Source: Candidatus Thiodictyon syntrophicum
Lineage (GTDB): Bacteria > Pseudomonadota > Gammaproteobacteria > Chromatiales > Chromatiaceae
Direction of reading: 5' to 3'
Assembly: GCF_002813775.1 (NCBI RefSeq)
Contig: NZ_CP020370.1
Span: 6,597,501-6,661,500 of the forward strand
Length of the DNA: 64,000 nucleotides
Shown here: positions 13,292 through 61,625 of the stretch, in pieces
How the letters are laid out: the number at the start of each line of letters is the position of its first letter
Numbering within the stretch: the stretch's first letter is position 1
Notes under the pieces: model-generated
The model's database searches: none
The model's input: only the letters and a program-made list of their open reading frames with translations
Told to the model about the DNA's origin: nothing
Made by a program: the position numbers and the translations under genes

Positions 13292-13487
13292 ACGAGTCAA
13301 GAACAAGCTAAACACAAACACGTTCGTTGTCGTTGTCGTTGTCGTAATCGAGGTTATCGTAGCGCCCCGGATTCTCTCGCACCCCAAAGTGCATCGCTTC
13401 TCCGATTTCGATTACGACAACGACAACGACAACGAAAATGGCGCTATAGGCAGTCCCTAATCGAATCGTTTAGCTTATTAGTCAACC
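13292..13487. repeat. Hexamer-arm palindromic element, copy 1
   Basis: Three GTTGTC units plus GTAATC (13326-13349) face GATTAC plus three GACAAC units (13410-13433). The roughly 60-bp core, GAGGTTATCG to CTTCTCCGAT, recurs inverted at 55872-55943. Outer arms AAGCTAAAC (13305-13313) and GTTTAGCTT (13468-13476) bound the element. It occupies the gap between a hypothetical gene and the 3' end of hynL. Confidence 0.85.
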
Positions 13488-35286: not shown

Positions 35287-35522
<236 letters not shown>

Positions 35523-45108: not shown

Positions 45109-47064
45109 TCAGAAGCTGTGGTTCATGCCGATCGAGAAGCCGCTCCAGTCGGCATCTTCGATCTTGTCCGAGACCTTGGTATAGAGCAGGAAGGCCGCGG
45201 TACGCTTGCTGAAGTTGTAGTCGTACCCGATGGCCCAGGAGTTCTTCTGCTTGTTGTTGACCAGGATTTCGCTGGCGAAATACTGCCCGAGCGCGCTCGC
45301 CTCGCAGGTGTAGCGGAAGCCAACGCCGTTCGGATCGGCGCAGTTGTCCAGATCGGCACGGCCCCACATGGCCTTGATCATGTTGTTGCCGAAGGCGTAG
45401 CCGGCCTGCACCTGGAAGAAGTTGCCGTTCGATTGCGTGGGCGCACCCAGGATGTTCTGACGCTGCTCGTAGATACCCGTCAGGCTGAAGCCGTTCCAGT
45501 CCAGCAGCCCCAAGCCGACGCGCACCCTGGTGTCGCTCTTGGCGGTACGGTCCTGGTACAGCACGGCATAGTCGGCGTTCTGGGTCTCCCAGTTGCTCTT
45601 GTCCAGGGACTCGTAGGCGACGGACCCGTAGAAGGGGCCGTTCTTGTAGATAGCCGCCAGGGAGTAGGCACCGGTGATGGAATCGGCATTCTGGTCGAGC
45701 GCGCCCAGCAGGGTACCGCCATTTTGGGGGGTCATGGCCGCGATAAACTGGAAGCCGTTCCAGTTCGGGGACATATAGGCAACCACGTTGTCGAGCCGCG
45801 CGTAGGCGAAGCCGATGGTGGCGTTGTTGTCAGCCAGGGTGTCGTAGAAGAGGTCCAGCTTGCCCGTGGACATCGTCAGCGGGCTGTCGTAACGACCCAA
45901 CATGAAGGTACCCCAATCGCCCGCCAACCCGACGAAGCTATTGCGGATGTTGACGCCGGAGTTGGTGACCAAGGTCCCACGGTTGCCGTTGGCCAGGACC
46001 GTATCGCGGTTGGCATTGGTGATGTCGACACCGATTTCGATCTGGTAGACCGCCTTGAGGCCATTGCCCAGGTCCTCGGAGCCCTTCACACCCAGTTTGT
46101 TGGCGGGACCGACGACGGCGGCGTTGCTGGTGTCCATGCCCCAGCCCTTATAGGACCGGCCGCGCTGATAGGCACCGCTGACCGCCGCCGCGTAGGCGAG
46201 GTTCTGCAACTGGTTCAATCGCGCCGTCGCATTGTTGTAATACGCTTGGGTGACGTTGCCGATCTGCAGATCGCTCGTCAGCTTCGCATGCTGACCCGCG
46301 AAATAGGCGTCCATGCTGTAGGCGCCGGCTTGCGGCGCCACGGTTGCGACCGCCATGTTCTGCGCTGCGGCAAAGTTCGCCTGATAGCTGTTCCAGGCGC
46401 CTCCGGCAACCTTATCATAGGCGTCGGCCGCCGCAACACTCGCCTGCGCCGCGGTGGCGCCCTGGGCAAGCCGGGCGTTGTAGGCAGCCACACCGGCCTG
46501 GTCGGCCGTTGTGATGACCTGAGCCGGGCTGTAATTGTAGCCGTTGGCCAGGGCGGTCGCGCCGGCAAGCTGGGCCCAGTTCTGGGCATTGAGCGGGTAG
46601 GCCGACTTCAAGGAGATCGCCGCAGCCTGGTAATAGGCTGCTTGTGCCTGGGGGTTCAGGAACCGAGTGACCTGCGATCCCTGCGAGGCGGTTGGCATAA
46701 AGGCGGTACTGGCGGCGGAGCCGGGCACCGGCTGCCCACGCCAACGGTTGTAGTTCAGCGCATTGTTGGGATCACCGCTGAAGCCAGTGCCGGTACCCAT
46801 AACAGTCACAGGCCAGCGCTGGGCGGGGTAGGTCCCCAGGGCGCCCAGGGTGTCGTAGTTAGCCGCGCTGCCGTTCTTGAATCTGGCGAAGTCGAACTGC
46901 GGGCGCAGGGCTTCCTGACCAGGACGGTGGAAGGTGGCGTTCTGTTCGACGTCGATGTAGTCGAGGGAGACATTGACTTTGCCGTACAGGATGGCCTCGG
47001 CCGAGGCGACTGCCGGCACGGCCAGGGCGGCGGCGACCGCCAGGGTGAGAAGGTTCTTGTTCAT
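45109..47064 (-). CDS. Gram-negative outer-membrane porin (Porin_4 type) with a large N-terminal insertion
   Basis: A 651-aa general porin with signal peptide (MNKNLLTLAVAAALAVPAVA) and the first strand AEAILYGKVNVSLDYIDV. The rest of the barrel starts only near residue 320 with NKLGVKGSEDLGNGLKAVYQ and runs to the terminal strand ending in Phe (SGFSIGMNHSF). In ordinary relatives these two parts are almost adjacent. Here about 270 residues rich in Ala, Gln, Asn and Tyr lie between them (for example AAAISLKSAYPLN and TAAQASVAAADAYDKVAGG). GGAG lies 6 nt before the ATG at 47064, and an ATG at 47067 is also possible. Own promoter and terminator are visible. Confidence 0.9.
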   Translation of the reverse strand: MNKNLLTLAVAAALAVPAVASAEAILYGKVNVSLDYIDVEQNATFHRPGQEALRPQFDFARFKNGSAANYDTLGALGTYPAQRWPVTVMGTGTGFSGDPNNALNYNRWRGQPVPGSAASTAFMPTASQGSQVTRFLNPQAQAAYYQAAAISLKSAYPLNAQNWAQLAGATALANGYNYSPAQVITTADQAGVAAYNARLAQGATAAQASVAAADAYDKVAGGAWNSYQANFAAAQNMAVATVAPQAGAYSMDAYFAGQHAKLTSDLQIGNVTQAYYNNATARLNQLQNLAYAAAVSGAYQRGRSYKGWGMDTSNAAVVGPANKLGVKGSEDLGNGLKAVYQIEIGVDITNANRDTVLANGNRGTLVTNSGVNIRNSFVGLAGDWGTFMLGRYDSPLTMSTGKLDLFYDTLADNNATIGFAYARLDNVVAYMSPNWNGFQFIAAMTPQNGGTLLGALDQNADSITGAYSLAAIYKNGPFYGSVAYESLDKSNWETQNADYAVLYQDRTAKSDTRVRVGLGLLDWNGFSLTGIYEQRQNILGAPTQSNGNFFQVQAGYAFGNNMIKAMWGRADLDNCADPNGVGFRYTCEASALGQYFASEILVNNKQKNSWAIGYDYNFSKRTAAFLLYTKVSDKIEDADWSGFSIGMNHSF

Positions 47065-47137: not shown

Positions 47138-47166
47138 ACTATAGACGACCCGGGAGACGCTTGCAA
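47138..47166 (-). promoter_or_regulatory. Sigma-70-type promoter of the porin gene
   Basis: On the minus strand, TTGCAA (47161-47166) and TATAGT (47138-47143) are separated by 17 bp, close to the -35/-10 consensus. It lies about 71 bp upstream of the porin ATG, with a GGAG ribosome binding site in between. Confidence 0.75.
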
Positions 47167-47232: not shown

Positions 47233-47341
47233 CGTCGTTGTCGTTGTCGTTGTCGTGGTCGGATTATTCGACAACGACAACGACAACGACAACGAGAGCG
47301 TACCCGGGATCTCGGTCACCACATCAGTTCTGGTCGCACCC
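47233..47341. repeat. Half copy of the GGGTGCGATC MITE-like element with hexamer hairpin
   Basis: GTTGTC x3 plus GTGGTC (47237-47260) faces GACAAC x4 (47270-47293). It is followed by TACCCGGGATCTCGGTCACC and the end CATCAGTTCTGGTCGCACCC (to 47341), as in 35287-35540. The opposite end is missing. It lies in the 552-bp gap between the divergent porin and hupS, whose remaining part holds the two promoters. Confidence 0.85.
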
Positions 47342-47619: not shown

Positions 47620-48756
47620 ATGCCGACCACCGAGACCTTCTATGAGGTCATGCGGCGCCAGGGGATCACCCGCCGCAGCTTTCTCAAATTTTGCAGCCTC
47701 ACCGCCACGGCCCTGGGGCTGGGGCCGGCCTACACCGCGCAGCTCGCGCACGCCATGGAGACCAAACCGCGCATCCCGGTGCTGTGGCTCCACGGGCTGG
47801 AGTGCACCTGTTGCTCGGAGTCCTTCATCCGCTCGGCCCACCCCCTGGTCAAGGACGTGATCCTGTCCATGATCTCGCTCGACTACGACGACACCATCAT
47901 GGCCGCCTCCGGGCACCAGGCCGAGGCGATCGTCGCGGAGATCCGGGAAAAGTACAAAGGCAACTATATCCTGGCGGTGGAGGGCAACCCGCCGCTCAAC
48001 CAGGACGGCATGTCCTGCATCATCGCCGGGCGGCCCTTTCTTGAGCAGTTGAAAGAGGCGGCGGCGGACTGCAAGGCGATCATCTCCTGGGGCTCCTGCG
48101 CCTCCTGGGGCTGTGTCCAGGCGGCCCACCCCAACCCGACCCACGCGGTCCCGATCCACCAGGTCATCCATGACAAGCCCATCATCAAGGTCCCGGGTTG
48201 TCCGCCGATCGCCGAGGTCATGACCGCGGTCGTGACCTTCATGCTGACCTTCGATCGCATCCCTGAACTGGACCGCCAGGGCCGGCCCAAGATGTTCTAC
48301 GGCCAGCGGATCCATGACAAGTGCTACCGCCGGGGCCACTTCGACGCTGGCCAGTTTGTCGAGACTTGGGACGACGAGGGCGCACGCCGCGGCTACTGCC
48401 TCTATAAGATGGGCTGCAAGGGGCCGACCACCTACAACGCCTGCTCCACTACCCGCTGGAACAACGGTGTCTCCTTCCCCATCCAGTCCGGCCACGGGTG
48501 CATCGGCTGCTCCGAGGACGGCTTCTGGGACAAGGGTAGCTTCTACGACCATGTGACCGACACCCGGGTCTTCGGCGTCGAGCTCAACGCGGACCGGGTG
48601 GGCTTTGCCGCCGCCGGGACCGTAGGTGCGGCCGTGGTGGCCCACGCGGCGGCGTCCGCCATCAAGCGCATCCGCAAGCCGGCGGAGTTCGGCGATCAGG
48701 AGCCTGGGAAGACTCAGGCCGACGCGGGTAACGATCAGACAGGTGAGCGTTCATGA
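47620..48756 (+). CDS. hupS: [NiFe] uptake hydrogenase small subunit HupS (oxygen-tolerant type)
   Basis: A 378-aa Tat-exported small subunit (twin-arginine [20 protein letters not shown]). The proximal-cluster region reads [19 protein letters not shown] and later [18 protein letters not shown]. These are the two extra cysteines (the second C of CTCC and the C in WGC) that create the [4Fe-3S] cluster of oxygen-tolerant enzymes such as E. coli Hyd-1 and Ralstonia MBH. The rest ([50 protein letters not shown]) is standard. A C-terminal helix ([20 protein letters not shown]) anchors it. GGGGAG precedes the ATG and the stop overlaps hupL. Confidence 0.97.
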
Positions 48757-50543
48757 GCATCGAGACCCCCAACGGCTTCACCCTGGACAATGCCGGCACC
48801 CGGGTCGTGGTGGACCCGGTGACCCGCATCGAGGGTCACATGCGCTGCGAGGTGAATCTCGACGCGAACAACGTGATCCGCAACGCGGTGTCCACCGGCA
48901 CCATGTGGCGCGGGCTGGAGGTGATCCTCAAGGGCCGCGACCCGCGCGACGCCTGGGCCTTCACCGAGCGGATCTGCGGTGTCTGCACCGGCACCCATGC
49001 CCTGACCAGCGTGCGGGCGGTGGAGGACGCGCTCGGGATCCAGATCCCGGAGAACGCCAACACCATCCGCAACATCATGCAGTTGACGCTCCAGTCGCAC
49101 GACCACCTGGTGCATTTCTACCACCTGCACGCGCTCGACTGGGTGGACGTGGTCTCGGCGCTCAAGGCCGATCCCAAGGCGACCTCCACCCTCGCCCAGT
49201 CCATCTCCAACTGGCCGCAGTCGTCCCCGGGCTGGTTCCGCGACGTGCAAAACCGGCTCAAGCGCTTCGTGGAGTCCGGACAGCTTGGCCCCTTCATGAA
49301 CGGCTACTGGGGCAACCCGGCCTACCAGTTGCCGCCCGAGGCCAACCTGATGGCGGTCGCCCACTATCTGGAGGCGCTCGACTTCCAGCGCGAGATCGTC
49401 AAAATCCACACCGTCTACGGCGGCAAGAACCCCCACCCCAACTGGCTGGTGGGCGGCGTCGCCTGCGCCATCAACCTCGACGACACCGGGGCCGTGGGCG
49501 CGGTCAACATGGAGCGGCTGAACCTGGTCTCCTCCATCATCGACCGCACCATCGACTTCATCGACCAGGTCTACGTCCCGGACCTGCTGGCAATCGCGTC
49601 CTACTATAAGGAGTGGACCTACGGCGGCGGGCTCTCCAGCCGCTCGGTCATGTCCTACGGCGACATCCCGGAACGGGCCAATGACAACAGCGCCGCCAAC
49701 CAGCTCCTGCCCCGGGGCGCCATCATCAACGGCAACCTCGACGAGGTCCACGACGTGGACCTGCGCGATCCGGCGCAGGTCCAGGAGTTCGTCGCCCACT
49801 CCTGGTACCGCTACCCGGATGAGCGCAAGGGCCTGCACCCCTGGGACGGGGTGACCGAGCCCAACTTCGTCCTGGGTCCGAACACGGTCGGCACCAAGAC
49901 CAACATCCAGGCCATCGACGAGGGCGCCAAGTACTCCTGGATCAAGGCCCCGCGCTGGCGCGGCCACGCCATGGAGGTCGGCCCCCTGGCGCGCTGGGTG
50001 ATCGGCTATGCCAAGGGCATCCCGGAGTTCAAGGAGCCGGTAGAGAAGGTCCTGACGGATCTGAATCTCCCGGTCACGGCGCTGTTCTCGACCCTGGGCC
50101 GCACCGCCGCCCGCGGTCTGGAGGCCTCCTGGGCGGTACACAAGCTGCGCTATTTCCAGGACAAGCTGGTGGCCAACCTCAAGGCCGGGGACAGCGCTAC
50201 CGCCAACACCGACAAGTGGGACCCGGACACCTGGCCCAGCGAGGCCAGGGGCGTGGGCACCACCGAGGCCCCGCGCGGGGCGCTCGGGCACTGGATCGTC
50301 ATCAAGAAGGGGCGGATCGAGAACTATCAGGCCGTGGTCCCCACCACCTGGAACGGCTCGCCGCGGGACCCGGCGGGCAACATCGGCGCCTTCGAGGCGG
50401 CCCTGCTGAACACCCCGGTAGCGGTGCCCGATCAGCCGCTGGAGATCCTGCGCACCCTGCACAGCTTCGACCCTTGTCTCGCCTGCTCGACCCATGTCAT
50501 GAGCCCGGAGGGGGAGGAGCTGACGCGGGTCAAGGTGCGGTAG
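48753..50543 (+). CDS. hupL: [NiFe] uptake hydrogenase large subunit HupL
   Basis: A 596-aa catalytic subunit starting [20 protein letters not shown]. Ni-Fe ligands are in [20 protein letters not shown] (near residue 75) and in DPCLACSTH at the C-terminus. The tail [15 protein letters not shown] after that His is the 15-aa peptide removed on maturation. It overlaps hupS by 4 nt. Similar in length and motifs to HyaB/HoxG of group 1d enzymes. Confidence 0.97.
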
Positions 50544-55814: not shown

Positions 55815-55964
55815 AGGATTCAAAAGCAAGCTAAACACAACATAATCGTTGTCGTTGTCGTTGTCGTTGTCGTAATCGTAATCGGAGAAGCCATGCAATT
55901 TGGCGTGCGAGAGAATCCGAGGCGCTACGATAACCTCGATTACGACAACGACAACGACAACGAC
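55815..55964. repeat. Hexamer-arm palindromic element between the two GH57 genes
   Basis: Four GTTGTC units plus two GTAATC (55848-55883) face GATTAC plus three GACAAC (55938-55961). The core is the inverse of the one at 13344-13415, and the flank CAAGCTAAACACAA (about 55829) is shared with 13304. It ends at the stop codon of the upstream GH57 gene (55966). Confidence 0.87.
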
Positions 55965-61377: not shown

Positions 61378-61625
61378 GGGTGCGATCAGAACTGATGTGG
61401 TGACCGAGATCCCGGGGATGCCGTCGTTGTCGTTGTCGTTGTCGTAATCGAACAGTCCGACCACGAGCACGACAACGACAACGACAACGACGCCCGGTCC
61501 GCGGGAACGTCCGGTTGCTGTAGGGTAGGCATCGCGTACCCGGCTCCGGCGGTCGCCGCAGTTGGGCGAGTACGCGATGCGTACCCTACGATGCGTGCGT
61601 TGATACATCAGTTCTGATCGCACCC
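61378..61625. repeat. MITE-like element with GGGTGCGATC ends and hexamer hairpin, copy 3
   Basis: GGGTGCGATCAGAACTGATG (61378) and CATCAGTTCTGATCGCACCC (to 61625) are a near-perfect terminal inverted repeat. The inside is the reverse of 35287-35540: GTTGTC x3 (61426-61443) faces GACAAC x3 (61471-61488), and TAGGCATCGCGTACCC faces GTACGCGATGCGTACCCTA. It occupies half of the 486-bp gap before the symporter. No clear target duplication. Confidence 0.9.

What the first reader, a model, noticed from the sequence alone, without database searches (positions are those of the whole stretch)
45109..47064. Porin with about 270 extra residues between the first and second barrel segments
The signal plus first strand (residues 1-40) and the normal barrel (from about 320) are separated by an Ala/Gln/Tyr/Asn-rich stretch with no frame break. 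Ordinary Porin_4 proteins have only a short loop there. The stretch could form a plug, an outer domain or a helical extension in the periplasm. Its gene has its own promoter and terminator, so it is probably well expressed.
Basis: partly seen in the sequence, partly recalled or inferred. Interest (0 to 1): 0.6.

Follow-up and report, generated by a model that had tools for sequence, protein, structure and literature searches.

The report
Porin with a giant surface loop
The only classical porin gene found in this purple sulfur bacterium (probably Thiodictyon syntrophicum) carries about 260 extra, largely helical residues in its first outward-facing loop; every close relative has such an extension, and in some of them it differs strongly while the barrel stays nearly constant, which points to an unstudied surface module on a major outer-membrane channel.

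Summary
Window 45109-47064 (minus strand) is one uninterrupted 651-codon gene: signal peptide, first strand (23-39), about 260 extra residues (43-303), then strands 2-16 of a Porin_4 barrel. It is not an assembly fusion: all seven other species of the genus searched carry it, including a ciliate endosymbiont, mostly at the same locus beside hupSL. AlphaFold gives a 16-strand barrel; strand/turn order puts the insert in loop L1, on the extracellular side, not in the periplasm. The insert is mostly helical, poorly folded by prediction, and matches no Pfam, PDB, plasmid or phage entry. L1 length is graded: 16-30 residues in outgroups, 25-83 in most Chromatiaceae, 134-162 in Thiohalocapsa (separate, dissimilar sequence), 178-286 in one Thiodictyon/Lamprocystis clade. 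Between window and nearest relatives the insert is under purifying selection (dN/dS 0.17-0.46). Among Lamprocystis orthologues the barrel is 93-97% identical while the insert is 33-69% identical with excess synonymous divergence, suggesting replacement by recombination; tree tests do not prove that. Most likely: a working porin with an added surface domain over the pore mouth. Function is inferred. New variant of a known kind.

The parts
45109..47064 (-). Porin gene, 651 aa plus stop; the only PF13609 gene found in the genome apart from a weak hit to a FadL-like protein
46999..47064 (-). Signal peptide, residues 1-22 (MNKNLLTLAVAAALAVPAVASA), assigned by inspection
   Evidence: sequence; conserved in all relatives
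46948..46998 (-). Barrel strand 1, residues 23-39
   Evidence: AlphaFold E23-39, pLDDT 84-88; conserved ILYGK motif
46156..46938 (-). Insert in extracellular loop L1, residues 43-303
   Evidence: alignments; strand order; no family match
46660..46938 (-). First part of insert, residues 43-135: G/P/T-rich, low-confidence, probably flexible
   Evidence: pLDDT mostly 30-53; composition
46165..46659 (-). Second part of insert, residues 136-300: 30% Ala, 11% Gln, 8.5% Tyr; predicted helices 138-153, 161-175, 180-200, 205-239, 245-267, 273-295
45112..46155 (-). Barrel strands 2-16, residues 304-651, ending in Phe
   Evidence: PF13609; AlphaFold; Foldseek to Omp32 and PorB
45799..45885 (-). Loop L3 between strands 5 and 6 (residues 394-422), the expected constriction loop, with two short helices
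45043..45070 (-). Rho-independent terminator hairpin followed by a T run
47138..47166 (-). Promoter-like site TTGCAA-17-TATAGT (9 of 12), weak evidence

Best explanation
This is the general diffusion porin (Porin_4, OmpF/PorB/Omp32-type 16-strand barrel) of a Thiodictyon-type purple sulfur bacterium, in which extracellular loop L1 has grown into a surface domain of about 260 residues: a flexible Gly/Pro/Thr-rich part followed by an Ala/Gln/Tyr-rich helical part. Shown: gene integrity, position between strands 1 and 2, clade-wide conservation, graded loop length in the family. Predicted: 16 strands, extracellular side, helices. Inferred: the barrel still works as a porin, probably a trimer, and the domain stands over or beside the pore mouth as a surface cap that sets what reaches or recognises the protein (shielding the porin from phages, bacteriocins or grazers, or contacting the capsule or neighbouring cells) rather than transporting anything itself. 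In Lamprocystis the domain appears to be swapped or to diverge as a unit while the barrel is kept, as expected of a surface-recognition region.
For: Porin_4 hit and structural match of the barrel to Omp32 and PorB. Insert on the long-loop side: short turns after strands 2, 4, 6, 8, 10, 12 and 14, loops after 1, 3, 5, 7, 9, 11, 13 and 15. All seven other species of the genus carry it; same locus beside hupSL in L034, L035, L036, L037 and L039. L1 of 170 residues or more is one side of a branch on the barrel tree, SH-aLRT 92 (99 without GEM2.Bin25). Insert dN/dS 0.17 [0.09-0.29] against L033 and 0.46 [0.33-0.65] against the endosymbiont, so it is maintained. Among the hupSL-linked orthologues L035-L037 the barrel is 93-97% and the insert 33-69% identical; differences at fourfold sites of shared residues are 0.47-0.67 in the insert against 0.14-0.25 outside, Fisher p 4e-3 to 7e-9. 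PorA of Neisseria also concentrates variation in loops 1, 4 and 5 (PMC3457995).
Against: No experiment and no structure: the insert model is poor (pLDDT 42 alone; 30-90 in context), so a compact fold is not shown. Recombination was not confirmed by tree tests: swapped-topology AU tests gave p 0.21, 0.21 and 0.49, and in the fourth comparison no conflict existed. In the window's own group the insert is conserved, and against L033 it is better conserved than the barrel (98% in its middle against 83%), which does not look like a fast-evolving evasion surface. An intracellular endosymbiont keeps it, where phages and free-water grazers should matter less (L034).
Confidence: 0.55

Rival explanations
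1. Luminal plug or lid: part of the L1 domain folds back into the barrel and restricts or gates the channel, as the N-terminal stretches of VhChiP and OmpU or loop L8 of OmpT do.
For: The insert starts on the extracellular rim next to the pore; solved relatives with plug-like elements are among the fold matches, including deletion constructs of OmpU, OmpT-L8 and VhChiP; surface loops and plugs folding into the lumen are common (PMC10418385).
Against: L3 already occupies the usual constriction position; 260 residues are far more than a 16-strand pore can hold, so most would still be outside (inference); length varies by about 80 residues between close relatives without change in the barrel.
Confidence: 0.15
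2. Adhesion module: the domain mediates cell-cell or cell-capsule contact in these aggregate-forming bacteria.
For: Strain Cad16T forms aggregates in an EPS layer and associates with Desulfocapsa (PMC5944118); Ala/Gln/Tyr-rich helices with few charges would suit protein-protein contact; porins can bind receptors through loops (PMC3457995).
Against: No adhesin family matches; the endosymbiont, which lives inside a ciliate, keeps the domain; composition is not evidence of function.
Confidence: 0.15
3. Nearly neutral growth: L1 tolerates any length, and the domain has no selected function.
For: L1 length varies widely over the family, from 16 to 286 residues, with unrelated sequences in Thiohalocapsa and Thiodictyon.
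Against: dN/dS well below 1 in the insert (0.17 to 0.46); no loss in any member of the clade sampled, including a reduced endosymbiont genome.
Confidence: 0.1
4. Periplasmic helical extension.
For: Helix-rich composition resembles some periplasmic domains; one of nine inserts gives a sub-threshold SHOCT match (E 0.087).
Against: Strand order puts the strand 1-2 connection on the extracellular side; in the related porin PorA this is surface loop 1 (PMC3457995).
Confidence: 0.03
5. Assembly or sequencing artefact, or an accidental gene fusion in this strain only.
For: None.
Against: Independent assemblies of the other species carry the same architecture, Lamprocystis purpurea in two copies.
Confidence: 0.01

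Closest known systems
Neisseria PorB and PorA (trimeric 16-strand porins)
   Same: Same fold by sequence and structure comparison (PorB); PorA loop 1 (VR1) is surface-exposed and among its most variable regions (PMC3457995).
   Different: PorA loop 1 spans about 40 residues (31-70 in that paper), against about 280 between strands 1 and 2 here; the insert is predicted helical. Far below the PorB equivalog cut-off (52.7 of 480 bits).
Omp32 of Delftia/Comamonas acidovorans
   Same: Best structural match of the barrel (2fgq, E 2.8e-17, TM 0.72 by target).
   Different: 330 residues; no large L1 domain.
Other Chromatiaceae Porin_4 proteins (Thiocapsa, Allochromatium, Thiorhodococcus, Halochromatium, Thiohalocapsa)
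   Same: Same family, 40-50% identical in the aligned part, same strand 1 and GWG...GVKGSEDLG motif.
   Different: L1 mostly 25-83 residues; 134-162 in several Thiohalocapsa-related proteins, with a dissimilar sequence in a different part of the tree.
Vibrio OmpU, OmpT and VhChiP
   Same: General porins with extra elements that enter the pore (own knowledge; one search lists deletion constructs of them).
   Different: Those elements are short, at the N-terminus or in L8; none is an L1 domain of this size.

Membership tests
Porin_4 (PF13609), general diffusion porin | Match above the curated Pfam score | tested here: met
   116.6 bits against 27; residues 318-632
Porin_4 (PF13609), general diffusion porin | 16-strand barrel with short periplasmic turns, long outer loops and an L3 loop | tested here: met
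   AlphaFold: 16 barrel strands, L3 helices at 395-399 and 413-416; prediction only
Porin_4 (PF13609), general diffusion porin | Signal peptide and C-terminal Phe for outer-membrane assembly | tested here: met
   N-terminal hydrophobic segment ending ASA, terminal ...MNHSF; by inspection, no dedicated predictor run
Porin_4 (PF13609), general diffusion porin | Trimer and pore activity | not testable with these tools
   no multimer prediction or biochemistry available
Porin_4 (PF13609), general diffusion porin | Short L1 (usual, not strictly defining) | tested here: not met
   about 286 residues by the measure that gives 16-30 in outgroups
PorB of Neisseria (NF040479 equivalog) | Match above equivalog cut-off | tested here: not met
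   52.7 against 480 bits
Fused cytochrome-porin (Cyc2 type) | Haem-binding CXXCH fused to the barrel | tested here: not met
   no cysteine in the insert
SHOCT domain (PF09851) | Match above curated cut-off | tested here: not met
   one of nine inserts at E 0.087, window's insert none

The most novel reading that the evidence does not exclude
A free-living phototroph lineage carries an exchangeable surface cassette inside its main porin: a helical L1 domain that is replaced by recombination between relatives while the barrel stays fixed, giving antigenic-type variation, presumably against phages or grazers, in bacteria with no animal immune system to evade.
Probability: 0.25. Interest if true: 0.65.

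Novelty: new variant of a known kind. Interest (0 to 1): 0.45.

Why it matters
General porins are abundant gateways and common phage receptors, and their loops are usually tens of residues. A conserved L1 domain of about 260 residues, 40% of the protein, shows that an OmpF-type porin can carry a surface domain approaching the size of its barrel and still be kept as the only member of its family in the genome. The graded series across Chromatiaceae, with cultured members at several steps (Thiocapsa, Thiohalocapsa, Lamprocystis), makes it testable how such loops grow and what they buy the cell. I found no mention of this protein in the searched papers on Thiodictyon; supplementary tables were not read.

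Tried and rejected
Internal duplication of helical units in the insert: local alignment scores of the three segments against each other are no better than shuffles (z -1.1, -0.2, 0.7). A distant homologue in a CcmI-like protein (E 0.01, one of 369 genomes): a single weak helical match, treated as chance. Phage or plasmid origin of the insert: no tblastn match in either collection at E 0.01; no viral contig encodes a relative. A fold for the insert alone: pLDDT 42, no PDB match below E 2. A second extended porin in the genome: the other PF13609 hit is a FadL-like protein. Phylogenetic incongruence between insert and barrel: not significant (AU p 0.21-0.49). Homology of the GEM2.Bin25 insert to the window's: not detectable (z near 0), although barrel and position agree.

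Full report
What is there. The reported ORF exists exactly as described: window 45109-47064, minus strand, 651 codons and a stop. The genome has 7,738,984 bases in 3 contigs, which fits the 7.74-Mbp genome of Thiodictyon syntrophicum Cad16T (PMC5944118); that identity is inferred. Pfam Porin_4 covers residues 318-632 with 116.6 bits, and the N-terminal 39 residues align with the start of ordinary Chromatiaceae porins. Residues 43-303 are extra. A strong terminator follows the gene; the promoter is only a consensus match.

Not an artefact. All seven other species of the genus held here carry the same architecture, as do records named Thiodictyon, Candidatus Thiodictyon intracellulare, Lamprocystis purpurea (two copies) and others. 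The gene lies beside the divergent uptake-hydrogenase genes (hupSL type, named by inspection) in the window and in L034, L035, L036, L037 and L039, so these are orthologues; the second L. purpurea copy (L038) lies elsewhere. L033 is too short on that side to tell.

Where the insert sits. AlphaFold with 54 sequences gives barrel strands at 23-39, 323-333, 336-346, 371-382, 385-393, 423-431, 438-445, 466-475, 478-487, 511-523, 526-536, 547-558, 561-572, 606-617, 622-633 and 640-650, with a further short strand 305-310 in the loop. Connections after even strands are short turns; those after odd strands are mostly long. The insert is the first of the latter, hence extracellular loop L1. Foldseek places the barrel closest to Omp32 and PorB. 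In PorA the first loop is surface-exposed and hypervariable (PMC3457995). This contradicts a periplasmic location but not a lid or plug entering from outside.

What the insert is like. Residues 43-135 are rich in Gly, Pro and Thr and predicted with low confidence; residues 136-300 are 30% Ala, 11% Gln and 8.5% Tyr and predicted helical, with pLDDT up to 90 around 190-210 and about 80 around 260-280. Alone, the insert gives a poor model (42) and no PDB match. It has no Pfam match above cut-off, no PDB sequence match, no plasmid or phage match, and no convincing match in 369 gammaproteobacterial genomes beyond itself. No internal repeat was found.

How it arose. Measured the same way in all relatives, L1 has 16-30 residues outside Chromatiaceae, 25-83 in most of the family (17 at the least), 134-162 in five Thiohalocapsa-related proteins, 178 in GEM2.Bin25 and 201-286 in Thiodictyon and Lamprocystis. 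On a barrel-only tree the long class (170 or more) is one side of a branch (SH-aLRT 92; 99 for the eight without GEM2.Bin25), and the Thiohalocapsa class lies in a different part of the tree. Their sequences do not resemble each other by eye. So the loop has probably grown substantially at least twice. The insert of the window is clearly homologous to those of Lamprocystis (z about 3 to 13 for two of three segments), weakly to those of the L039/L010 group (z up to 3) and not detectably to that of GEM2.Bin25.

How it evolves. Between the window and L033 the insert has dN/dS 0.17 [0.09-0.29]; against the endosymbiont 0.46 [0.33-0.65]. It is therefore maintained. In the Lamprocystis orthologues L035, L036 and L037 the barrel is 93-97% identical while insert segments are 33-69% identical, and synonymous differences at fourfold sites of shared residues are 0.47-0.67 in the insert against 0.14-0.25 outside. 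Higher synonymous divergence cannot easily come from amino-acid selection alone; it suggests that insert and barrel have different genealogies, through recombination. Limits: part of these inserts is hard to align, which inflates the figure for pairs with L037; the well-aligned pair L035/L036 still shows 0.47 against 0.25 (p 0.004). AU tests of swapped groupings were not significant. For well-aligned Lamprocystis pairs the insert's dN/dS is 0.23-0.32, so there is no sign of positive selection.

Mechanism. I propose a working porin with a surface domain at L1 that covers or flanks the pore mouth and governs access and recognition at the cell surface. Position and maintenance are supported; function is inference. 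A plug, an adhesion role and near-neutral growth are rivals, ranked by the evidence given in their sections. The conserved state in the window's own group and retention in an endosymbiont weigh against a pure phage-evasion reading.

Novelty. It is a member of the general porin family by every defining feature that could be tested, with an L1 of unusual size: a new variant of a known kind. The papers searched on this organism do not mention it in their main text; supplements were not read, and many subscription papers are not held.

Noticed in passing
window 47234-47295; also 13324-13435, 35427-35495, 55846-55964, 61423-61491: Inverted pairs of a hexamer microsatellite, (GTCGTT)n then (AACGAC)n some 10-90 bases later; five in the window, and 614 overlapping 22-mer matches genome-wide with none for the reversed control. 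An abundant dispersed hairpin element of unknown role.
   Followed up: partly
window 45715-45984 (residues 361-450): The L2-L3 region around the constriction loop has changed fast on the window's own branch (dN/dS 0.70 against L033, 0.18 for residues 451-651; L033 against L034 0.24 in the same region), including K397T and H392Y against relatives. The interval is wide, 0.34-1.33.
   Followed up: partly
L050, L055, L062, L069, L072: Thiohalocapsa-related porins have a separate L1 expansion of 134-162 residues, not Ala-rich, with a shared motif like GNPIID near its end.
   Followed up: partly
L037 and L038: Lamprocystis purpurea has two extended porins at different loci, barrels 88% and insert segments 35-60% identical.
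   Followed up: partly
window 47620-50543: Uptake-hydrogenase genes diverge from the porin, and this neighbourhood is conserved across Thiodictyon and Lamprocystis but was not seen beside porins of other Chromatiaceae fetched here.
   Followed up: no
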